Part shown: positions 34,252 through 48,015 of the stretch, piece by piece
Numbering within the stretch: the stretch's first letter is position 1
Layout of the letters: each line of letters starts with the position of its first letter
Source: Catenulispora sp. MAP5-51
GTDB taxonomy: Bacteria; Actinomycetota; Actinomycetes; Streptomycetales; Catenulisporaceae
DNA: 64,000 bases
Reading direction: 5' to 3'
Assembly (NCBI RefSeq): GCF_041261205.1
Contig: NZ_JBGCCH010000015.1
Location: 1 to 64,000, forward strand
Position numbers and translations under genes: made by a program
The notes under the pieces: generated by a model
Told to the model about the DNA's origin: nothing
The model's input: the letters and a program-made list of their open reading frames with translations, nothing else
The model's database searches: none

Positions 34252-34323
34252 TGGGGTATGGTGTAATTGGCAACACGGCTGATTCTGGTTCAGTTGTTCT
34301 AGGTTCGAGTCCTGGTACCCCAG
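34252..34323 (+). tRNA. tRNA-Gln (CTG)
   Basis: A 72-nt cloverleaf. The acceptor stem pairs TGGGGTA with TACCCCA, the anticodon loop is TTCTGGT with CTG at 34285-34287, and the T-arm has GGTTCGAGTCC. The CCA end is not encoded. It is the only tRNA-Gln here and the substrate of the GltX/GatCAB route. Confidence 0.95.
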
Positions 34324-34330
34324 CTTTGCG

Positions 34331-35454: not shown

Positions 35455-35527
35455 GGCCCCGTTGTGTAGCGGCCTAGCACGCTGCCCTCTCAAGGCAGTA
35501 GCGCGGGTTCGAATCCCGTCGGGGCTA
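35455..35527 (+). tRNA. tRNA-Glu (CTC), copy 1
   Basis: A 73-nt cloverleaf. Acceptor GGCCCCG pairs with CGGGGCT (terminal G-U), anticodon loop CTCTCAA with CTC at 35489-35491, T-loop TTCGAAT; no encoded CCA. It is identical to the copy at 37070-37142. Confidence 0.95.
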
Positions 35528-35536
35528 CCTCACGGC

Positions 35537-37069: not shown

Positions 37070-37142
37070 GGCCCCGTTGTGTAGCGGCCTAGCACGCTGC
37101 CCTCTCAAGGCAGTAGCGCGGGTTCGAATCCCGTCGGGGCTA
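37070..37142 (+). tRNA. tRNA-Glu (CTC), copy 2
   Basis: Identical to copy 1, with the CTC anticodon at 37104-37106. The identity extends two bases 5' and three bases 3' of the tRNA, making a 78-bp direct repeat 1.6 kb apart. Confidence 0.95.
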
Positions 37143-37150
37143 CCTTTGCG

Positions 37151-37225: not shown

Positions 37226-39175
37226 ATGACGACGCGCCGCGATGGATCCGCCACACCTCGTATCGCCTCGATGTTGCGGTTGCTGTTCGTCGCCGTGGGC
37301 ATCGTCAGCCTGATCCTCGGCTATGTGGGCCTGGACCGGTACCTCCATCTGCCGGGCCAGACGTACAGCCACACCCCGAGCGACCTGGTCTATTTCGATC
37401 TGGAGCTGTTCCTGGTCCAGGCCACCCCGCTGGCCGCGGGCGGTCCGTTCCCGTGGCAGCTGTCGGTGGCGCGGTTCAGCGCACCGAGCGTCCTGCTGTA
37501 CGCCCTCGCGGAGATCGTGGTCGCGCTGTCCGCGCGAAGGCTGCACCGGGCCTGGCTGCGCCGGTCGCGGGGGCACGCGGTGGTGTTCGGCACGACGCGC
37601 GTCGCCTCGGTGGTGGTCGAGCGGCTGCGGGCCCGAGGAGTACGGGTCCTGGTGGTACGGCCGGACAGCGCCGCCGACCCGGTGCGGTTCGACTCCGTCT
37701 CCGACGACCGCTGGACCATCGTCGGCCGGCCCGCCTCGCCGCGGACCCTCACCGACGCAGGCGTCCGACGGGCCTCGACGGTCTACGCCTGCCTGGACCG
37801 GATCGAGGACAACGCCGAGGTCGCCTACGCGATCGAGGCATGGCGCGGCGAGCAGCGGTACCCCGAGCGCGTCTACGCCTCGATCGACGACCTGGACCTG
37901 TGCACGGCGCTGAAGGCCCGCCGGTGGTCCACGGCCGGCGCGGGGCGTTCGCACGTGGACTTCTTCAACCGCGACGAGCTCGCCGCGCAGACAGCGGTGC
38001 GGCGCGACCGGGCGGCTCTGGAGGGGCCGGGGGCGCCGCACATCGCGATATCGGGGACGGGGGCGTTCGGGCGGTCGGTGTTGGTGGAGTTGGGGCGGCA
38101 GTGGCAGGGATGCGCCGGACGCGCCGGACGCGCCGAGCACAGCGAACGCGCCGTTGGCGGCAGTCGCACCGGTCAGCCGCAACCTGACGGCGGCATCGTC
38201 ACCATCGCGCTCGTCGGCGCCGACGCCGACGCGGTCGGTTCGCGGCTGTGCGAGCAGTACCCGTTCCTGCTCGACGTCTGCGTGATCGAGCCCTGGACCG
38301 ACACGCTGCCGCGGCTGCTGGAAGAGCGGCGCCGGACCGGCGCGCCCCGGCTGCGCCGGCTGTACCTGTGCCACGGCGACGAGCGCGAGGCCCTGTCCGA
38401 CGCCTTGACCTGCGGCTCCTACCTGAGCTCGATGGACGGCGTGGTGGTCCGCCTGGACCGCATGTCGCAGATGGCTGAGATGTTCCACGGCGGCAGCCGC
38501 CCCGGGCCCCTGTTCGACGCCCTCGACGGCCGCCTGGAACTGGTCGACGTCACGGCGCTGGGCTGCGACCCGGACCGGATCGGCGACGACCTGGCCGACA
38601 GCCTCGCGCAGTCCATCCACCGCCGCTACCTGGCCGACCAGCTCGCCGGCGGCCGCGGCTGGCACTCCACCACGGCGATGACCCCCTGGGACGAGCTGCC
38701 GCCGGACGTCCAGCGCGGCAACCGCGAGCAGGCCGAGGACGTGGGCCGCAAGCTGGCCTCCATCCGCTGCCTGCTGACACCGCGCCGCGAGACGGTCGGA
38801 CCGTTCGCCTTCCGCCCCGCCGAGATCGAGACCCTGGCCGAATCCGAACACGCCCGCTGGGCCGACGAACGCCGCCGCAACGGCTGGCGCTACGGCCCGC
38901 GCCGCGACGACACCCGCAGAGTCCACCCCGGGCTGGTGGCCTGGCCGCTGTTGCCGGAGGAGCAGCGGGACAAGGACCGCCTGTTCATCCGGGCCCTGCC
39001 GGCGTTGCTGAGCGGCATGGGACTGGCGATCGTGCGGATCGGGGAAGGCGGCGGGCCCGCCCCGCGCCACACCCCCGCCACCCAGTCCCCAGCCCCGGCA
39101 TCCGGCGCAACGGAATCCAGCGGCACCCGCGACTCGCCCATCCCGGTGACCGCCCTCGGCAGCGATCTGTGCTGA
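37226..39175 (+). CDS. Membrane TrkA-N/Rossmann protein with C-terminal RyR domain
   Basis: A 649-residue protein. Two hydrophobic helices (about 16-36 and 83-101) flank a short segment with a channel-pore-like look. Two Rossmann-type domains follow: the first has a degenerate loop (VVFGTTRVAS), the second an intact GTGAFG (in HIAISGTGAFGRSVL). The last domain, about 530-605, is a ryanodine-receptor (RyR) repeat: LAESEHARWADERRRNGWRYG, RRDDTRRVHPGLVAWP, LPEEQRDKDRL. The Pro/Ser-rich C-terminal tail is disordered. GGGGAGG precedes the ATG. Such TrkA-N/RyR proteins are known from predicted nucleotide-signal systems. The SLOG gene starts 10 nt later. Confidence 0.82.
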   Translation: MTTRRDGSATPRIASMLRLLFVAVGIVSLILGYVGLDRYLHLPGQTYSHTPSDLVYFDLELFLVQATPLAAGGPFPWQLSVARFSAPSVLLYALAEIVVALSARRLHRAWLRRSRGHAVVFGTTRVASVVVERLRARGVRVLVVRPDSAADPVRFDSVSDDRWTIVGRPASPRTLTDAGVRRASTVYACLDRIEDNAEVAYAIEAWRGEQRYPERVYASIDDLDLCTALKARRWSTAGAGRSHVDFFNRDELAAQTAVRRDRAALEGPGAPHIAISGTGAFGRSVLVELGRQWQGCAGRAGRAEHSERAVGGSRTGQPQPDGGIVTIALVGADADAVGSRLCEQYPFLLDVCVIEPWTDTLPRLLEERRRTGAPRLRRLYLCHGDEREALSDALTCGSYLSSMDGVVVRLDRMSQMAEMFHGGSRPGPLFDALDGRLELVDVTALGCDPDRIGDDLADSLAQSIHRRYLADQLAGGRGWHSTTAMTPWDELPPDVQRGNREQAEDVGRKLASIRCLLTPRRETVGPFAFRPAEIETLAESEHARWADERRRNGWRYGPRRDDTRRVHPGLVAWPLLPEEQRDKDRLFIRALPALLSGMGLAIVRIGEGGGPAPRHTPATQSPAPASGATESSGTRDSPIPVTALGSDLC

Positions 39176-39185
39176 GGTCGGCATC

Positions 39186-39677
39186 ATGCAGCGCATCGGA
39201 ATCACCGGCCACCGCCAGTTCGACGAACCGACGACCCGCCTGATCCGCGCGGCCCTGCGCCGTGTCGTCGAGGCCTACCAGGGCTGCGACCTGATCGGCG
39301 TGACCTGTTTGGCCGAGGGCTCCGACACGTTGTTCGCCGAAGCCGTCGCCGACCGCGGCGGCCGGCTCGAGGTGGTCGTCCCCGCCGTCCGCTACCGGGA
39401 GACCCTGCCGGCAACGCATCAGGACGCGTATGACGAATGGCTGGCGCGCGCCACCGAGGTCCACCGGCTCGCCTTCTTCGAGTCCGACGATGCCGCCTAC
39501 CTGGCCGGCGGGGAACAGATGCTGATGGTGATCGACCGGCTGATCGCCGTGTGGGACGGCCTTCCGGCGCGGGGAATCGGAGGCACGGGTGACATTGTGC
39601 AGAATGCATACCGACGCGGCCTGCCCGTGGAAGTAGTATGGCCGGACGGCGCGCTACGAGCAGCAGTGCACGAATAA
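39186..39677 (+). CDS. SLOG-like Rossmann protein (DprA/LOG-related)
   Basis: A 163-residue protein. It begins IGITGHRQFDE with a GxTGHR loop, then LIGVTCLAEGSDTLFAEAVA and LEVVVPAVRY, matching the SLOG superfamily of nucleotide-binding Rossmann domains. QNAYRRGLPVEVVWP ends the fold. Predicted to bind or process a nucleotide-derived ligand; the activity is not known. GAGG 8 nt before the ATG and a 10-nt gap after the RyR gene indicate an operon of these two. fxsA follows 131 bp later. Confidence 0.7.
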   Translation: MQRIGITGHRQFDEPTTRLIRAALRRVVEAYQGCDLIGVTCLAEGSDTLFAEAVADRGGRLEVVVPAVRYRETLPATHQDAYDEWLARATEVHRLAFFESDDAAYLAGGEQMLMVIDRLIAVWDGLPARGIGGTGDIVQNAYRRGLPVEVVWPDGALRAAVHE

Positions 39678-39758: not shown

Positions 39759-39808
39759 GCTGACGGCCGGGACCGCCGGCCATCCGACCGCACAGACAAG
39801 GGGACTCC

Positions 39809-39952
39809 GTGGGCTTCGAGGGCGAACTCCTGGTGTCCGACATTCCGGTGGTGGACGACGTACCGCTGTCCATGCTCGCCGCTGACGGAGACCTGCTGAC
39901 AAGGAGCGACGACACCGACGTCCCGGTCGCCGAGTTCCAGTCGTCGGTCTGA
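39809..39952 (+). CDS. fxsA: FxSxx-COOH precursor peptide FxsA
   Basis: A 47-residue acidic peptide. It begins VGFEGELLVSD and ends PVAEFQSSV, so the C-terminus is F43-Q44-S45-S46-V47, an exact FxSxx-COOH ending. AAGGGGA lies 5 nt before the GTG at 39809. In the FXS system the partner radical SAM enzyme FxsB installs a three-residue cyclophane from the Phe ring to residue i+2 (Ser). The gene is 38 nt before fxsB. A chance FxSxx terminus directly before an fxsB-like gene is unlikely. Bioactivity is unknown. Confidence 0.88.
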   Translation: MGFEGELLVSDIPVVDDVPLSMLAADGDLLTRSDDTDVPVAEFQSSV

Positions 39953-39990: not shown

Positions 39991-42228
39991 GTGTTCCGTC
40001 AGTTCGTCGTCAAGATCGCCAGCCGTTGCGATCTCGCTTGCGATCATTGCTACGTCTACGAGCACGCCGACCAGTCGTGGCGCGGGCGTCCTCGCGTCAT
40101 GCCCGCGGATGTCATGGAATCGGCCGTGGCCCGCATCGCAGAACACGCGGCCGCCCATCATCTGCCCCGGGTGACCGTCGTCCTGCACGGCGGAGAGCCT
40201 TTGCTGGCCGGCGTCGAGCGCATCAGAACCCTCGCCAGGGGGCTGCGGGAGGCGCTACCGACGGGCTGCAAGGCCGGCATCCGTATCCAGACCAACGGAC
40301 TACAGCTCAACGACGCGTTTTGTGAGATGTTCCGGCAGGAGGACATCGGCGTCGGGATCAGCATCGACGGCGACCGCATCGCGAACGACCGGCACCGCCG
40401 GCACGCGAACGGCCGCACCAGCTACCCGGAGTTGGTGCGGGCGATCCAGCTCGTCGGCTCGGAACAGTACCGGTCGATCTTCAACGGCCTGCTGTGCACC
40501 GTCGACGTCGAGAACGACCCGGTCGCCGTCTTCGACGCACTCGCCGCGTTCACTCCCCCGCGGATCGAGTTCCTGCTCCCCCACGCGACATGGGTCGAGC
40601 CGCCGCCCGGCGCGCAGCCCGGGCAGGCCCGCTATGCGGCGTGGTTGCTGGCCGTCCATCAACGCTGGACCGAATGCGGCAGACCCATGGATGTCCGCTT
40701 GTTCCGCTCGGTCTCGGATCTCCTGGCCGGAAGGTCGAGCAGGACCGAGGCCATCGGGCTCGAACCGGCGGACATCGTCGTCGTGGAGACCGACGGCACG
40801 ATCGAACAGGCGGACTCGCTCAAAACCGCCTTCGACGGCGCGCCGGCGACCGGCTTCGACGTCGTCCGCCACAGCTTCGACGAGGCCGCCGCCCACCCCG
40901 GATTCGACGGCCGCCGTGCCGGGGCCGAGTCGTTGAGCCCGATCTGCCAGCGGTGTCCCGCGGTCCGGATCTGCGGGGGCGGACTGTACGCGCATCGCTT
41001 TGACGGCACCGGATTCTCCAATCCGTCCGTCTACTGCCGGGACCTCTACACGTTCATCACCGGATTGACCGGCCAGACCCGGCAGACATCGCCCATCTCC
41101 CGGCACCGGATGAGTCCTGCCGACTTCAGCGCGCTGGGCCGCGGCGAGGGATCCGAGAGCGGCGTCGCGGCGTTGAAGGCCGCTCAGGTGAGCAAAGCAC
41201 GGATGAGGCTGGCACAACTCGCCAAGCCTTTGCAGGCCGAGCGCAGTTGGACTCTGGTCCGGCAGTTCGACGCCGCCGACCGGAACCAGCTGAACCGGGT
41301 TCTGGCCGATCCGTTCCTGATGCCGGCGGACGGCACCGCGGCGCGCGGACCGGGTGGAACACTCACCAGAATCGCTCTCGGCTGCGCGGTCCTGAGCTCC
41401 GAACCAGTCGAAGCCGACCTCGCAGTGGCCGAGGACGTGCTTTCGTTACCGGGCGTCGGCGCGTTACCGGTGACGGCGGGGCCGGTTCACGTCAGAGTCG
41501 CGGAAACGTCGGCGATCACTGTCAACGGCGTCAGTGCCGAGGCAGCGCGCCACACAGTCTGTATGGGCCCGGTGCGAATCCGCATCGAGGATCACGACCC
41601 GGCGCGGGACCGGTTCGGGCATCCGGTGACCGGACCGTTGACCTCGGCCGAGCTCGACGCATGGCGGGACGGACTCGACGCGACCGCGGTGGTGCTCGCG
41701 AAACGTCATCCCGAGGCCCTGGCCGAGATGGCCGAGGGCCTGACGACCATCGTCCCCTTACAGCCGCAGCCAGGGCGTCAGCGCAGCGCGACGGCCAGGA
41801 ACGCGTTCGGCGCACTGGGAATCGCCTTGCCCGCGCCGACCGACGGTGACGTCGGCGAAGCCCTCGCCTGCCTCGTGCTGCACGAGTTCCAGCACTTGAA
41901 GCTCGGTGCCGTCCTGGACATGTTCGATCTCCACGACAGGACCGAGGACGCCGAGACGGCCGGCTATCGCGTCGCGTGGCGGCCGGGTCCGCGTTCGTTG
42001 GAGGCCGTGCTCCAAGGCGCGTACGCGCATATCAGCGTGGTCGAGTACTGGCGCAGGCGTGCGCAAGCCACTCAAGGGCCGCACAGCCGGGAGTACGCAA
42101 GGCGTTCGGAAGACCTCGCCGGACAGGTCGAGGACGCGTTGTCGCAGATCACGACGAGCGTCGCGCTGACCCGGCTGGGCCGGCGCTGGGTCGCTGACAT
42201 GGCCGCGACAGTGGCCGGGTGGCGCTGA
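39991..42228 (+). CDS. fxsB: Radical SAM/SPASM maturase FxsB with HExxH extension
   Basis: A 745-residue enzyme. The radical SAM cluster motif is C13-x3-C17-x2-C20 (CDLACDHCY), near the N-terminus as in FxsB. The SPASM region has C319, C322, C328 and C349 (CQRCPAVRICGGG and YC). A long C-terminal extension ends with LHEFQHLK, giving His631-Glu632-...-His635, an intact HExxH. The named FxsB family is described as carrying an inactivated metallohydrolase extension, so this copy may be catalytically intact. GTG at 39991 follows GGAGAGA. It should modify FxsA at the FQSSV core. Confidence 0.9.
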   Translation: MFRQFVVKIASRCDLACDHCYVYEHADQSWRGRPRVMPADVMESAVARIAEHAAAHHLPRVTVVLHGGEPLLAGVERIRTLARGLREALPTGCKAGIRIQTNGLQLNDAFCEMFRQEDIGVGISIDGDRIANDRHRRHANGRTSYPELVRAIQLVGSEQYRSIFNGLLCTVDVENDPVAVFDALAAFTPPRIEFLLPHATWVEPPPGAQPGQARYAAWLLAVHQRWTECGRPMDVRLFRSVSDLLAGRSSRTEAIGLEPADIVVVETDGTIEQADSLKTAFDGAPATGFDVVRHSFDEAAAHPGFDGRRAGAESLSPICQRCPAVRICGGGLYAHRFDGTGFSNPSVYCRDLYTFITGLTGQTRQTSPISRHRMSPADFSALGRGEGSESGVAALKAAQVSKARMRLAQLAKPLQAERSWTLVRQFDAADRNQLNRVLADPFLMPADGTAARGPGGTLTRIALGCAVLSSEPVEADLAVAEDVLSLPGVGALPVTAGPVHVRVAETSAITVNGVSAEAARHTVCMGPVRIRIEDHDPARDRFGHPVTGPLTSAELDAWRDGLDATAVVLAKRHPEALAEMAEGLTTIVPLQPQPGRQRSATARNAFGALGIALPAPTDGDVGEALACLVLHEFQHLKLGAVLDMFDLHDRTEDAETAGYRVAWRPGPRSLEAVLQGAYAHISVVEYWRRRAQATQGPHSREYARRSEDLAGQVEDALSQITTSVALTRLGRRWVADMAATVAGWR

Positions 42229-42344: not shown

Positions 42345-42953
42345 TTGCCAGCCCGTCCGAATCCGCCGTACCCCGTCTTCTTCAGCTACGCCCATATCAC
42401 CGGCGGGGACTTCGACGAGAATCCGAACCTGGCCTTCCACCAGTTCTTCGACGACATCGGCAAGATGCTCTACCACCTGACCACCTTCCGGATGGATGTC
42501 GCATTCGCCGATGTCTCGCTGCGCACCGGCGATGCTTTCCAGTCGGTCCTTTTCGAACGACTGGCCCACTTCCAGGTCTTCGTGCCGGTGCTGTCCGTGC
42601 GCTACTTCGACAGCGTTTGGTGCGGCCGGGAATGGGCTTCGTTCGAGAAACGCTGCGAACAAATGGGCAAGTCCTCGTATCCGCCGATCGTCCCCATTCT
42701 GTGGAACGGCCTGGACGACCTGAGCCTGCCGGAGTGGTTCACCGACCGGCACCTGTTCGACGACTCGACCCACGACGCCCTCTACCGTCAGCACGGGTTG
42801 TTCGGCCTGCAGATCCTGCACCGGGCCGAATACCAGGCCACGGTCTACGACCTGGCCCGGCGGATCGGCGGCGTGACGAAATCGGCTGACCTGCCCGACG
42901 GCGACCCCGAAGAGCTTCACAGCCTGCCCCCGCGGTTCGGAGGTTCACCATGA
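42345..42953 (+). CDS. TIR-like protein, short FxsC paralogue
   Basis: A 202-residue TIR-domain protein. VFFSYAHITGG is box 1 and VWCGREWASFEKR carries the candidate catalytic Glu96, as in NADase-type TIRs. It resembles the FxsC N-domain but lacks the FxsC C-terminal domain. It starts with TTG (AGGAGAG about 5 nt upstream). Its stop overlaps the fxsC start by ATGA. The role may be NAD+ cleavage or signalling; no activity is proven. Confidence 0.8.
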   Translation: MPARPNPPYPVFFSYAHITGGDFDENPNLAFHQFFDDIGKMLYHLTTFRMDVAFADVSLRTGDAFQSVLFERLAHFQVFVPVLSVRYFDSVWCGREWASFEKRCEQMGKSSYPPIVPILWNGLDDLSLPEWFTDRHLFDDSTHDALYRQHGLFGLQILHRAEYQATVYDLARRIGGVTKSADLPDGDPEELHSLPPRFGGSP

Positions 42954-44152
42954 CCGACAACACACCCAAGCCGGCGGGCACCGGTCCGGTCTTCTTCCTC
43001 AGCTACGCCCGGCCCAGCGCGGCCGAACGTGTCCAGGGCGACCCGGACCGGGACTACGCGGCCTTCTACTACGACCTGTGCGCCGCGCTCACACGGTTCG
43101 CACCGTTGGACCGCCTCCACAACCTCGGAGCGGTCAGCGCGGCGTGGAACCCCTCGGGCATCCCCGCTGAGCGGGATGTGGCGCTGGACATCGCCGAATG
43201 CGACGTCTTCATCCCGCTGCACCAGGAACGGTATTTCCAGAACGAGCAGTGCGGCCGGGAACTGGCCGCCTTCGAAGCCAGGATGCGGCTGGCCACCACG
43301 CCGCGCTCCGACGCGATCCTGCCCGTCGTGTGGGCTCCGGTCCCGCCGCAGTGGGCCGCGTCCCAGCCCTCGCCCTACCAGACCGGGCAGCCGGACATCG
43401 ACGAGGAGTACCAGTTCAAGGGCCTGTTCTGGCTGCAGAGCGCGCATCCGGCCCGCTACCACGAGGTCGTGACGAGTCTGGCCCGGCGCATCGCGGAGAT
43501 CGCCGCCGGACGCACCGTCGGCCGCGTCGACGCCGCCGAACTGGCCAACCTGCCGAGCTCGCTGCGCCAGGCCGAGCGCCAGCCCCTGGTGGTCGTCCTG
43601 CTGGCCCCGACGCGCGGGCGGCCGCCCGGCGCCACCGGGCCGCAGTACGGCGCGGAGTCCACCGACTGGGCACCGTTCGCCTCCGAGACGCCCGTACCGC
43701 TGGCCGACACCCTGGTCACGCTGGCCCGCGACAAGGGCTGGGAGCCGGAGGTGGTGCCGTTCACCACCGACGAGCGGCGGCTGTTCGGCGCCGACGAGCC
43801 CGAATCCCAGGTGGTGCTGGTCGTCGACCCGCACGCGCTGGACGATCTGCGCTGGCGCGGCGCGCTGGAGCGGTTCGACCGGATCGACAAGCCGTGGGTC
43901 GGCATCGTCGCCGCCCTGGATCCGGCCCACACGCCGGCGAACGAGCAAGTCCGGCTCAGGGAGCAGCTGCGCCGAGTCCTCAACCGGAAGTTCGCCCGCC
44001 GCAGTCCCTCCCTCCGGCTCAACGCCCCGATCGCGACCTCGCTGCAGAACTTCGACCTGGCCCTGGACGCGACGGCCAACAACACCCGGATCCAGCTGGC
44101 GAACCACCTGCACCGCGTCGGACACGCCGCCGAGGAAGAGGGCACCGCATGA
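42950..44152 (+). CDS. fxsC: TIR-like protein FxsC
   Basis: A 400-residue protein with an N-terminal TIR-like domain (VFFLSYARPS; EQCGRELAAFEA with Glu104) and a C-terminal region (about 205-400) with LVVVLLAPTRGRPPG, VVLVVDPHALDD and a final IATSLQNFDLAL helix, the FxsC C-terminal domain type. GGAGG lies 6 nt before the ATG. It overlaps both neighbours by ATGA, so fxsC, the short TIR gene and fxsT are one translational unit. Probably cytosolic; partner of FxsT. Confidence 0.87.
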   Translation: MTDNTPKPAGTGPVFFLSYARPSAAERVQGDPDRDYAAFYYDLCAALTRFAPLDRLHNLGAVSAAWNPSGIPAERDVALDIAECDVFIPLHQERYFQNEQCGRELAAFEARMRLATTPRSDAILPVVWAPVPPQWAASQPSPYQTGQPDIDEEYQFKGLFWLQSAHPARYHEVVTSLARRIAEIAAGRTVGRVDAAELANLPSSLRQAERQPLVVVLLAPTRGRPPGATGPQYGAESTDWAPFASETPVPLADTLVTLARDKGWEPEVVPFTTDERRLFGADEPESQVVLVVDPHALDDLRWRGALERFDRIDKPWVGIVAALDPAHTPANEQVRLREQLRRVLNRKFARRSPSLRLNAPIATSLQNFDLALDATANNTRIQLANHLHRVGHAAEEEGTA

Positions 44153-47100
44153 CCCAGCAGCCAGGCCGCATCATCACCTTCTACTCGTACAAGGGCGGCT
44201 GCGGACGGACGATGGCGGTGGCGAACACCGCCTGGATCCTGGCCGCCAACGGGAAGCGGGTGCTGACGGTCGACTGGGACCTGGAGGCTCCGGGGCTGGA
44301 CAAGTTCTACCGGCCGTTCATCGACCAGAGCGCCCTGAGCGAGCACCTGGGGGTGAGCTACCTCGTCACGAACTACGAATTCGCCGTCAGGGACTGGTCC
44401 GTCGCCAACCATTCCCGCAGCGTGCGCCGCACCCCGCCAAGCGTCATCGCGAGCCAGTACACCCGGCTGCAGGACCACGTCATCCCGGTCCGCTGGGACT
44501 TCCCTTCAGGCGGCCGGCTCGACTTCCTGCCGGCCGGCGCCAGCAATCGCGATTACGGCACCGGCATGTCCGGCTTCGAGTGGGACCGGTTCGTCCAGGA
44601 CTACCACGGTGACGAGTTCATCGAGGCGCTGCGGTCGGCGATGCGCCGGGACTACGACTACACCCTCATCGACAGCCGCACCGGGATGAACGACGTCGGC
44701 GACCTGTGCACGGCGCTGATGCCCGACACTCTCGTGATCGGGTTCGCGCTGAACGACCAGAGCATGGAAGGCGCCTCGGACGTGGCCCAGCGCGTCAGTG
44801 GCTACGACGATGGCATAAGGATCATGCCGATCCCGATGCGGATCGAGGACGCGGAGTCGGACAAGAAGGATGCCGGGCTGGCCAAGGCCCATTCACTCTT
44901 CCAGCACTACGTGACCGCCGAGCGCCCGCACGAGTACTGGGGCAAGGTACAGATCCCCTACAAGGCCTTCTACGCCTATGAGGAAGTCCTGGCAGGCTTC
45001 GGCGACCGTCCCGGACAGCCTGGCTCGCTGCTCGCCGCCTTCGAGCGGCTGACCGACGAGATCAGCGGAGGGGCAGTCCTCTCGCTGCCTCCGTTGCCGG
45101 AGGTGGAACGGACCAACTTTCTGCGGACGATGTTCACCAGACGCAGGCCCGAGGCACCCGCGGAAATCCTCCTCAGCTTCGTCTCCGAGGACCGGCCCTG
45201 GGCGGAATGGGTCGCGTTCGTCCTTGAGCATTCGGGACTGCGTGTCAGGACTCATCGCGAAGCCGAGTCCACCATTGTGCCCAACGCGCTGAGCCTGGCG
45301 TTGCGATCGACGAAACGCACCATAGCGTTGGTCTCGGAGGCGTACCGCACCTCGCCGGAGTGCGAGGCGTTGCTGAACGCACTGCACGAGGCAGACCCGG
45401 CCAAGACGCGCGGACTGGTGGTGCCGTGCCGGGTGGACGCGTCGTCGATCGAGCAGATCTTCCCGACCCGGATACTCGTCGAGCTCGATCAGCTCGACCA
45501 GGTGGCGGCGATCCGACATCTGGCTCAGATTCTGGAGACCCCGCTGCAGGCACCTGAGGGAACGCGCTATCCGGGGGCGAAGCCGGAGATCTGGCTGGTC
45601 CCGGAGAGAAATCCGGACTTCACAGGCCGCGTCCAGCTCATGGACAAGCTGCGCGAGCAGATGCGGGCGGGACGGACGACGTCGCTGCGAGCCCTGCACG
45701 CCGCCGGAGGGTTCGGCAAGACCCAGATAGCCGTCGAATACGCCGACCGGTTCAAGTCAAGCTACGACATCGTTTGGTGGATCCGCAGCGAGGACCCCCA
45801 TCGCGCCGTGGAGGCGATGGCCCAGCTCGGCGAACGCCTCGGGCTGCGGGCCTCGAACGACGTGGCGACCGTCGAACTGGTCAAGGACGCGCTGCGCCGC
45901 GGCGAGCCGCACAAGCGGGCATTGCTGATCTTCGACAACGTGCCCCGTGCGGAGACCATCGCGGGCCTGCTCCCGGGAGGAGGCAACACGCACATCCTGA
46001 TCACCACCCGGGACCGCGAGGTCGCCGCTGACCGGGGAACGACACTGGACGTCAGCACCTTCGTCCGCGAAGAGAGCATCGCGCTGCTGCACCGGTACGT
46101 CCCGGAGATGGCGTGGCCGGACGCGGACCGTCTCGCCGCGGCTCTGGGCGACGTGCCGATCGACATCGACGCGGCCGGCAAGTACATCCAACTGACCGCT
46201 GTGACGGTCGAGGACTACCTGGCCCGGGTACCCACGTCGGTCCGCGGCTCGGTCTGGCTCGCGGCGATCCAGCAGGTCGAGAACATGTCGCCGGCCGCGA
46301 CCCGCATGATGGAGCTGTTCGCGTTCTTCGGCAGCGACCCGGTCGACCGCGCCATCCTCTACAGCGATCAGTTCGCGCGGGTTCTCGCCGCATACGATCC
46401 GGCGCTGTCCGTCGACCGGGCTCTTCTGGGGGACTACGCCGCCGTCCTGAACCGGTTCGGTCTCGTGCGCATCGACCGGGTCCACGGATTCACGATGCAC
46501 CGCGCGTTGCAGGAGTTCCTACGCCCCAGGCTGGTCGAGCAAGGCGTCGCCGACAACGCCCGGCGTTCGGTCCAGCAGATCCTGGCACAGTCCCGTCCGA
46601 CCAGCGGCGACACCGACGACCCCGAGAACCGCGCCGCCTTCGCGCGGATCTGGCCGCATCTGTCGGCGTGCCACGCCGAGACCAGTACCGACGCGCATGT
46701 GCGTCAGCTGTTGATCGACCGGGTGCGGCACCTGTGGCTCACCGGCCAACTCGCCGAGGCCGAGCAGATCGCCCGGGACCTGATCGCGGTCTGGACCGAG
46801 CAGTCCGGCGACGACGACCGGTCGGTGCTTCGATTGCGGTTCCTGCTGGGCAACGTGCTGCGCAATGTCGGCCGGGCCCAGGAGGCGCACGAGATCGACT
46901 CCGATGTCGCCGAACGCCAACGCGCCATCCTGCCCGAGAACCATCCCGAACGGCTCAACACCTTGGCCAGTCTCGGCGCGGATCTGCGCGCCCTGGGCCG
47001 GTTCAGGGATGCCAGAGACGTGGACCGCTTCTGCTACGAGGTGACGCGGAAGTCTGTGGAACACGGCCGGGCGGCGCTGCGCGCCGCGCACAACTACGCG

Positions 47101-48015
47101 TTCTCCCTTGCGGTGACCGGCGACTGCTATGCGGCCCGCGACCTGGACCGGCAGCTGTACAACGACGAGAAGATGATCTTCGGCTACGAACACCCGTGGT
47201 CGCTGAACACCGCGATCAACCTGGGTCGTGACCTCCGCGACTGCGGAGACTTCGCGGGCTCTCTCCGCCTGAACGAAGCGGTACTGCGTCGATGCAGCGC
47301 CAAGCGCGGCGAATACGACCCCTACACCCTGGAATCCGCGAAGGGGCTGGCCGTCGCGTTGCGCAAGGCCGGCCGTTTTGAAGAGGGCCTGGCCCAAACC
47401 GAGGTGCTGGCGAAGGCGTTCGAGGCGGTGTTCGGCCCCAACGGAGCGGAAACCCTTGCGTGCAAGCTCAACCTCGCCTGTGACCTTTCCGCGGCCAACC
47501 AGCATGAGCACGCACTCGAGGCGGCCGTGGAGACGCGGAACCGCTACGAGAAACTGCTGGGAAGCACACATCCGCACACGTTGGCCAGCGCCAACAACGT
47601 GGCGATCTATCTGCGGACGACCGACAAGCCCGAGGACTCCCGCAAACTCGCCACCGCCACGCACTCCGGGCTCACCGACAGACTCGGTGAGGATCACCCG
47701 TTCACGTTGTACTGCGCCGTCAATCTCACCAACGCCCTGGTGGACTGCGGATTCCTCGAACGGGCGGCAAGACTGCTCACCAAGACGCTGGACCGGCTTC
47801 AGGCCGTCCTGCGATCCGATCACCCCAGTACGCAGATCGCCAGAGCGAACCGCGCTGCGCTGCAGCACCGCATGGGCCTCAAAACCGAAGCCGAAGCCTC
47901 CAGGACATCCGCCCTGGAGATGCTGAGGCCGGCACTCGGCGCGGACCACCAGATCATCAGGGCCTTCATGGAATGGCAGCCCGCAGACTTCGACCTGGAG
48001 CCCTACCGCACCTGA
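44149..48015 (+). CDS. fxsT: FxSxx-COOH system TPR/STAND protein FxsT
   Basis: A 1288-residue multidomain protein. Residues about 7-280 are a MinD/ParA-type ATPase (KGGCGRT at 15-21; LTVDWDLEAPGLDK). Residues about 338-465 are a TIR domain (AEILLSFVSEDRPWAEW). An NB-ARC/STAND NTPase follows (GGFGKT near 521; RALLIFDN as Walker B; HILITTRDRE). The C-terminal part, about 830-1280, is kinesin-light-chain-like TPR repeats (HPHTLASANNVAIYLRTTDK). Overlapping fxsC at the start, it also overlaps the next convergent gene by 13 bp. The domain set is that of sensor/effector immunity proteins. Confidence 0.9.
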   Translation: MTQQPGRIITFYSYKGGCGRTMAVANTAWILAANGKRVLTVDWDLEAPGLDKFYRPFIDQSALSEHLGVSYLVTNYEFAVRDWSVANHSRSVRRTPPSVIASQYTRLQDHVIPVRWDFPSGGRLDFLPAGASNRDYGTGMSGFEWDRFVQDYHGDEFIEALRSAMRRDYDYTLIDSRTGMNDVGDLCTALMPDTLVIGFALNDQSMEGASDVAQRVSGYDDGIRIMPIPMRIEDAESDKKDAGLAKAHSLFQHYVTAERPHEYWGKVQIPYKAFYAYEEVLAGFGDRPGQPGSLLAAFERLTDEISGGAVLSLPPLPEVERTNFLRTMFTRRRPEAPAEILLSFVSEDRPWAEWVAFVLEHSGLRVRTHREAESTIVPNALSLALRSTKRTIALVSEAYRTSPECEALLNALHEADPAKTRGLVVPCRVDASSIEQIFPTRILVELDQLDQVAAIRHLAQILETPLQAPEGTRYPGAKPEIWLVPERNPDFTGRVQLMDKLREQMRAGRTTSLRALHAAGGFGKTQIAVEYADRFKSSYDIVWWIRSEDPHRAVEAMAQLGERLGLRASNDVATVELVKDALRRGEPHKRALLIFDNVPRAETIAGLLPGGGNTHILITTRDREVAADRGTTLDVSTFVREESIALLHRYVPEMAWPDADRLAAALGDVPIDIDAAGKYIQLTAVTVEDYLARVPTSVRGSVWLAAIQQVENMSPAATRMMELFAFFGSDPVDRAILYSDQFARVLAAYDPALSVDRALLGDYAAVLNRFGLVRIDRVHGFTMHRALQEFLRPRLVEQGVADNARRSVQQILAQSRPTSGDTDDPENRAAFARIWPHLSACHAETSTDAHVRQLLIDRVRHLWLTGQLAEAEQIARDLIAVWTEQSGDDDRSVLRLRFLLGNVLRNVGRAQEAHEIDSDVAERQRAILPENHPERLNTLASLGADLRALGRFRDARDVDRFCYEVTRKSVEHGRAALRAAHNYAFSLAVTGDCYAARDLDRQLYNDEKMIFGYEHPWSLNTAINLGRDLRDCGDFAGSLRLNEAVLRRCSAKRGEYDPYTLESAKGLAVALRKAGRFEEGLAQTEVLAKAFEAVFGPNGAETLACKLNLACDLSAANQHEHALEAAVETRNRYEKLLGSTHPHTLASANNVAIYLRTTDKPEDSRKLATATHSGLTDRLGEDHPFTLYCAVNLTNALVDCGFLERAARLLTKTLDRLQAVLRSDHPSTQIARANRAALQHRMGLKTEAEASRTSALEMLRPALGADHQIIRAFMEWQPADFDLEPYRT

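What the first reader, a model, noticed from the sequence alone, without database searches (positions are those of the whole stretch)
39809..39952. Unannotatable-size RiPP precursor ending FQSSV
A 47-codon gene with a good Shine-Dalgarno encodes an acidic leader and an exact FxSxx terminus, 38 nt before the maturase. The predicted product has a cyclophane between Phe43 and Ser45.
Basis: partly seen in the sequence, partly recalled or inferred. Interest (0 to 1): 0.8.

Follow-up and report, generated by a model that had tools for sequence, protein, structure and literature searches.

The report
Ring-forming peptide gene beside its enzyme
A tiny gene that a standard gene-family model misses encodes a peptide whose tail is very probably tied into a small ring by the enzyme encoded next door, as in a known family of bacterial peptides; the enzyme also has a second, oxygen-using half, and comparison with relatives suggests which residues that half reads or changes.

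Summary
Window 39809-39952 is a 47-codon GTG-started ORF ending F43-Q-S45-S-V, 38 nt before fxsB. It is real: two Catenulispora orthologues keep the start, the spacing and the last 11 residues, with only synonymous changes there. A profile of other precursors ranks it first of 1053 window ORFs, though weakly (E 0.1), and NCBIfam's FxSxx-COOH model misses it. The neighbour is an FxsB radical SAM/SPASM maturase (530 bits, cut-off 370). If that domain acts, about +14 Da is expected, not -2 Da. New here: precursors beside an intact HExxH domain mostly carry V-A-A/x just before the Phe (Ala at -1 in 35 of 52), while those beside fused but inactivated domains never have that Ala (0 of 69), over about five separate losses. 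This suggests the HExxH half reads or modifies residues 40-42; the phylogenetic test is too small for significance. TIR and TIR/NB-ARC/TPR genes follow. New member of a known kind.

The parts
39798..39803 (+). Shine-Dalgarno-like aagggg, 5 nt before the GTG
   Evidence: read from the sequence
39809..39952 (+). fxsA: 47-aa precursor ending FQSSV
   Evidence: orthologues in L005 and L006, codon-level conservation, rank 1 of 1053 ORFs with a profile of other precursors, E 0.1
39926..39934 (+). V40-A41-E42, tripeptide before the ring Phe; proposed to be read or modified by the HExxH half
   Evidence: co-occurrence with an intact HExxH domain
39935..39949 (+). FQSSV; Phe43-Ser45 predicted cyclophane
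   Evidence: MscB precedent in PMC11002830
39991..42228 (+). fxsB: fused radical SAM/SPASM cyclophane maturase and aKG-HExxH domain, 745 aa
   Evidence: TIGR04269 530.2 bits, TIGR04267 122.1 bits; model matches 9gm3 (Z 42.4) and 22ob SjiH (Z 43.9)
40027..40050 (+). CxxxCxxC of the radical SAM cluster (C13, C17, C20)
41881..41895 (+). HEFQH (H631-H635) of the HExxH domain, intact
42345..42953 (+). TIR-like protein (FxsC N-terminal type, below cut-off)
   Evidence: NF040588 111.4 bits against cut-off 130; Pfam TIR_2 34.7 bits, cut-off 28
42950..44152 (+). FxsC-like TIR protein
   Evidence: TIGR04276 88 bits, cut-off 55; NF040588 122.1 bits, below its cut-off of 130
44149..48015 (+). FxSxx-system protein: MinD/ParA-like P-loop, TIR, NB-ARC, TPR
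   Evidence: NF040586 792.6 bits, cut-off 300; AAA_KGGVGR 130.3 bits; TIR_2, NB-ARC and TPR_12

Best explanation
This is the precursor gene (fxsA) of a standalone FxSxx-type triceptide system in a Catenulispora. A probable leader motif (VPL in DDVPLSML) helps FxsB bind the peptide. The radical SAM/SPASM half of FxsB joins the ring of Phe43 to the C-beta of Ser45, closing a three-residue cyclophane (-2 Da). The fused aKG-HExxH half then oxidises a residue near the ring, most likely within V40-A41-E42 (+16 Da per oxygen). The C-terminal peptide is then released or displayed and acts as signal or effector for the co-encoded TIR and TIR/NB-ARC/TPR proteins. Shown here: the gene, its conservation, the domains and the co-occurrence of V-A-x with an intact HExxH domain. 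Inferred from characterised relatives: the cyclophane and the oxygenase activity. Inferred from comparison alone: the leader motif and the oxidation site. Published prediction, untested here: the link to the TIR/NB-ARC module.
For: Orthologues with the same start, spacing and C-terminus and only synonymous changes in the last 11 codons. fxsB above curated cut-offs for TIGR04269 and TIGR04267; radical SAM and HExxH residues intact; fold matches to ChlB and SjiH. FxSxx-like precursors upstream of 121 of 133 fused homologues. MscB makes a Phe-Ser cyclophane (PMC11002830); a fused radical SAM/HExxH enzyme hydroxylates after cyclophane formation (PMC12636437). [V/I/L/A/T/M/S]PL motif in 56 of 124 precursor C-terminal 40-mers against 13.2 expected by shuffling. 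Ala at -1 in 35 of 52 precursors beside an intact domain, 0 of 69 beside an inactivated one.
Against: TIGR04268 does not match the peptide, and the home-made profile match is weak (E 0.1). No chemistry was tested. The V-A-x link rests on about five losses, and the formal test has only four supported pairs and cannot reach significance; intact-domain exceptions exist (ASYGF, TGISF).
Confidence: 0.8

Rival explanations
1. The ORF is a chance reading frame or an untranslated stretch; the true substrate of FxsB lies elsewhere.
For: Not matched by TIGR04268; weak profile score.
Against: Conserved start, spacing and C-terminus in two orthologues, dN/dS 0.42, no amino-acid change in the last 11 codons; only 0.24% of ORFs end FxSxx.
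Confidence: 0.03
2. Only the cyclophane is made (-2 Da); the HExxH half does not act on this peptide.
For: 74 of 133 fused homologues in this sample lack the HExxH residues yet mostly keep FxSxx-like precursors, so the ring alone is evidently useful.
Against: Here the HExxH residues are intact and V-A-x is kept in all three Catenulispora orthologues.
Confidence: 0.15
3. The HExxH half is a zincin-like peptidase that hydrolyses the precursor to free the C-terminal peptide, as first predicted for these systems.
For: Predicted in PMC7159879, citing Haft and Basu 2011; PflC shows proteolytic activity when the leader is absent (PMC12636437).
Against: The fused HExxH protein that was characterised is an aKG-dependent oxygenase, contrary to its earlier annotation as a metallopeptidase (PMC12636437); the window domain has the same fold (8s5f Z 27.1, 22ob Z 43.9).
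Confidence: 0.08
4. The V-A-x pattern is only a docking or spacing preference of the active fused enzymes, or an accident of shared ancestry, and the oxidised residue is Phe43, Gln44 or another.
For: Relatedness inflates the counts; four supported independent pairs only. Known aKG-HExxH enzymes hydroxylate His, Asp, Phe, Gln and Pro (PMC13060819), none of which is in V-A-E, although Phe and Gln are in FQSSV.
Against: About five separate losses all lack Ala at -1; the ring's middle residue shows no such link. The same co-occurrence logic pointed to the correct Pro in the pes cluster (PMC13060819).
Confidence: 0.4

Closest known systems
FxsB-family triceptide maturases with FxSxx-COOH precursors (TIGR04269 / TIGR04268; MscB in PMC11002830; Phan and Morinaka 2022, cited but not readable here)
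   Same: Radical SAM/SPASM enzyme next to a short precursor ending FxSxx; Phe-x-Ser target.
   Different: The precursor escapes TIGR04268; this FxsB carries an intact aKG-HExxH domain, which is absent or inactivated in many relatives.
ChlB (PDB 9gm3, 8s5f), fused radical SAM/aKG-HExxH enzyme
   Same: Both domains in one protein in the same order; radical SAM half Z 42.4, HExxH half Z 27.1.
   Different: 38% (radical SAM half) and 15% (HExxH half) identity; ChlB is described as a multiple cyclophane synthase, and its HExxH half hydroxylates Asp and His (PMC12636437); here there is a single C-terminal FxS motif.
SjiH (PDB 22ob, 22nu)
   Same: Closest solved relative of the HExxH half: Z 43.9, 34% identity over 360 residues. 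Its nearest relatives among the fetched loci mostly have VAAF-type precursors.
   Different: No paper on SjiH was found; its reaction is not known to me.
Standalone peptide-processing conflict systems of Kaur et al. 2020 (PMC7159879)
   Same: FxSxx peptide, radical SAM-SPASM enzyme, HExxH domain and AP-ATPase with MinD/ParA-like and TPR domains.
   Different: There the HExxH protein is called a metallopeptidase; sequence and fold point to an aKG oxygenase.
PosC / PflC (free aKG-HExxH enzymes, PMC12636437)
   Same: Same enzyme class; act near the C-terminus of a RiPP precursor and need an Ala (or Gly) for oxidative backbone cleavage.

Membership tests
FxSxx-COOH precursor (TIGR04268) | Score at or above the curated cut-off of the family model (28 bits) | tested here: not met
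   no match with hmmscan at E up to 10 nor in the genome search; so not filed under this model as such
FxSxx-type precursor next to FxsB (by motif and place) | C-terminus F-x-S-x-x, short ORF directly upstream of an FxsB gene, motif conserved in orthologues | tested here: met
FxsB (TIGR04269) | Score above 370 bits; radical SAM CxxxCxxC and SPASM cysteines | tested here: met
   530.2 bits; C13, C17, C20, C319, C322, C328, C349 invariant in 23 homologues
aKG-HExxH peptide beta-hydroxylase domain (TIGR04267) | Score above 40 bits, HExxH present, fold of the solved domains | tested here: met
   122.1 bits; HEFQH; 22ob Z 43.9 and 8s5f Z 27.1
aKG-HExxH peptide beta-hydroxylase domain (TIGR04267) | aKG- and iron-dependent hydroxylation | not testable with these tools
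   needs enzyme assay
Triceptides | Three-residue cyclophane, aromatic carbon joined to C-beta at i+2, -2 Da | not testable with these tools
   needs mass spectrometry and NMR; target Phe43-x-Ser45 is present
FxsC (TIGR04276 / NF040588) | C-terminal domain above 55 bits (TIGR04276) | tested here: met
   88 bits for 42950-44152
FxsC (TIGR04276 / NF040588) | N-terminal TIR-like domain above 130 bits (NF040588) | tested here: not met
   111.4 and 122.1 bits for the two TIR genes
FxSxx-COOH system TPR protein (NF040586) | Score above 300 bits | tested here: met
   792.6 bits
Standalone peptide-processing conflict system (PMC7159879) | FxSxx peptide, radical SAM-SPASM, HExxH, AP-ATPase with MinD/ParA-like domain and TPRs | tested here: met
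Standalone peptide-processing conflict system (PMC7159879) | Role in biological conflict (defence or toxin) | not testable with these tools
   PADLOC shows no specific defence system

The most novel reading that the evidence does not exclude
FxsB is a crosslink-and-cut enzyme: after the Phe43-Ser45 ring is closed, the aKG-HExxH half oxidises the V40-A41 segment and breaks the backbone at the conserved Ala, as PosC and PflC do at theirs, releasing a five- or six-residue cyclophane peptide that switches the TIR/NB-ARC/TPR protein. This would reconcile the older peptidase prediction with the newer oxygenase finding.
Probability: 0.12. Interest if true: 0.75.

Novelty: new member of a known kind. 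Interest (0 to 1): 0.4.

Why it matters
FxSxx systems recur in actinobacteria, but from what could be read the role of the peptide is unknown, and I found no statement of the residue changed by the HExxH half in FxsB-type enzymes. The comparison over 121 precursor-enzyme pairs gives a cheap, direct prediction: the V-A-x tripeptide before the ring is what the HExxH half reads or changes. It also shows that real precursors escape the family model but can be found by place, C-terminal motif and codon-level conservation, and that a search for a 2-Da loss alone would probably miss the final product.

Tried and rejected
Chance ORF: rejected by conservation and codon changes. Middle ring residue (x2) as the HExxH target: not supported; N, Q, D and S occur beside intact and inactivated domains alike, and independent pairs show no link. 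Plasmid or viral origin: no plasmid match to the peptide and no viral relative of FxsB in a pattern-based scan. PADLOC: only a weak viperin-type match to FxsB and PDC-M28B matches to the P-loop of the TPR protein, so no named defence system. Haft and Basu 2011, Nguyen 2020, Phan and Morinaka 2022, Morishita 2024 and Ruel 2025 are not held; their content is taken from papers that describe them, or marked as memory. Paper searches for FxsB, TIGR04269 and SjiH/SjiB gave nothing useful. A precursor-FxsB complex was not modelled: the structure tool takes single proteins and the two genes are in different frames.

Full report
What is there. Window 39809-39952 (+) is a 47-codon ORF that starts with GTG and ends FQSSV-stop; Phe is residue 43 and Ser residue 45. 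A Shine-Dalgarno-like aagggg lies 5 nt before the start, and the next gene, at 39991, begins exactly 38 nt after the stop.

Is it real? The genome is probably a Catenulispora: the closest named loci are C. pinistramenti and C. pinisilvae, with FxsB 71% identical, in genomes that the genome search places in the same genus. Both carry a 46-aa orthologue with ATG at the homologous start, the same 38-nt spacing and an identical last 11 residues, DVPVAEFQSSV. Against C. pinistramenti, dN/dS is 0.42 over 45 codons, and the last 11 codons have two synonymous and no amino-acid changes, while the DNA upstream of the gene has diverged. A profile made from 32 precursors of other loci, with the window and its two orthologues left out, ranks this ORF first among 1053 window ORFs, though with a weak E-value of 0.1. 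Only 0.24% of six-frame ORFs end FxSxx. The ORF is under selection as a protein.

What it sits next to. FxsB (39991-42228, 745 aa) matches TIGR04269 with 530.2 bits (cut-off 370) and, in its second half, TIGR04267, the aKG-HExxH peptide beta-hydroxylase, with 122.1 bits (cut-off 40). An AlphaFold model from 23 homologues (mean pLDDT 82.5, pTM 0.58) aligns over residues 1-370 with the ChlB radical SAM domain solved with its leader peptide (9gm3, Z 42.4, rmsd 2.4 A, 38% identity), and over 374-745 with SjiH (22ob, Z 43.9, rmsd 2.1 A, 34%) and the ChlB HExxH domain (8s5f, Z 27.1). H631, E632, Q634 and H635 are intact. Downstream are two TIR-like proteins, the second with the FxsC C-terminal domain, and a 1288-aa protein with a MinD/ParA-like P-loop, TIR, NB-ARC and TPRs that matches NF040586 with 792.6 bits. 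This is the standalone peptide-processing arrangement described by Kaur et al. 2020 (PMC7159879).

Most likely chemistry. The review PMC11002830 states that MscB, listed under IPR026335, joins C4 of Phe to C-beta of Ser; that IPR026335 is the FxsB family is from memory. A fused radical SAM/HExxH protein was shown to be an aKG-dependent oxygenase that beta-hydroxylates Asp and His once the cyclophane is in place (described in PMC12636437); other members act on Phe, Gln and Pro (PMC13060819). So the window's FxsB should do two steps, and the expected mass change is about -2 +16 = +14 Da, not -2 Da.

A new comparative result. FxsB homologues were collected in several rounds and the fused ones sorted by whether the HExxH residues are intact: 59 intact, 74 inactivated. 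The first set suggested that precursors of intact enzymes carry Ala just before the ring Phe (Ala at -1 or -2 in 17 of 17 distinct tails, against 3 of 28). The enlarged set, which contains the first, gives Ala at -1 in 35 of 52 precursors of intact enzymes and 0 of 69 of inactivated ones; Ala at -2 in 44 of 52 against 7 of 69; Val at -3 in 35 of 52 against 6 of 69. Beside inactivated domains position -1 is mostly Thr (51 of 69). The ring's middle residue does not follow this pattern. On a tree of the radical SAM half alone, the inactivated state needs at least six changes. Inactivated lineages with a known precursor end TSAGF/ASAGF, EGPGF/RGSGF/PDITF/SDSGF, PGSSF, PEGSF, and RISTF, KPITF, QAPIF and others in the large Streptomyces clade; a further lineage (L104, L210, L211) has no precursor found. 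L010 and L011, which lack the extension, end WPVTF and WPATF.

How far this goes. The formal independent-pairs test has only four supported pairs: Ala at -1 goes the same way in 3.1 of 4 on average and never the other way, but four pairs cannot reach significance. The raw counts are inflated by relatedness and must not be read as a p-value; the Fisher value printed is likewise not valid evidence. Exceptions with an intact domain are ASYGF and TGISF, and PAAKF, PVARF and the window's own PVAEF lack Ala at -1 while keeping it at -2. The pattern was noticed in the data, not predicted beforehand.

How it may work. The same logic, a residue present only when an HExxH enzyme is encoded, pointed correctly to the hydroxylated Pro in the pes cluster (PMC13060819). 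By analogy, residues 40-42 are the best candidates for what the HExxH half reads or changes. Since PosC and PflC cut the backbone oxidatively at an Ala (PMC12636437), oxidative release of the ring peptide at Ala41 is a possible but unproven extension. A hydrophobic-P-L motif occurs in 56 of 124 precursor C-terminal 40-mers against 13.2 expected by shuffling, and the window peptide has it (VPL, residues 18-20); it may be the leader recognition site. The role of the finished peptide, toxin or signal for the TIR/NB-ARC module, is the published prediction of PMC7159879 and was not tested here.

Verdict. It is a new member of a known kind, with one useful new lead: the V-A-x tripeptide and the likely +14 Da product.

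Noticed in passing
window 37226-39175 (+): 649-aa protein with TrkA-N and RyR domains, apparently a channel-like regulator; its gene lies upstream of fxsA in both Catenulispora orthologous loci but was found in none of the other 57 named loci.
   Followed up: partly
window 39186-39677 (+): 163-aa protein with no NCBIfam, Pfam or PDB sequence match, 131 nt before fxsA and conserved (70%) in the two Catenulispora loci; a 39% match lies in L057.
   Followed up: partly
own genome, contigs C4 and C2 (L002, L003): Two further FxsB paralogues with intact HExxH; their precursors end VAASFNSAL and VAAFDASI.
   Followed up: partly
L003, L009, L072, L073, L078, L111, L117: Precursors ending F-[D/N]-A-x-x, with Ala in place of the ring Ser; Ala as a crosslink partner is known for His-Ala triceptides (PMC11002830), so the ring may still form at Ala C-beta.
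   Followed up: no
L007, L033, L054: Fused FxsB with intact HExxH but no FxSxx-type ORF found upstream; the substrate may be of another type or lie elsewhere.
   Followed up: no
window 34252-34324, 35455-35529, 37070-37144 (+): tRNA-Gln(ctg) and two tRNA-Glu(ctc) genes a few kilobases upstream of the fxs genes.
   Followed up: no
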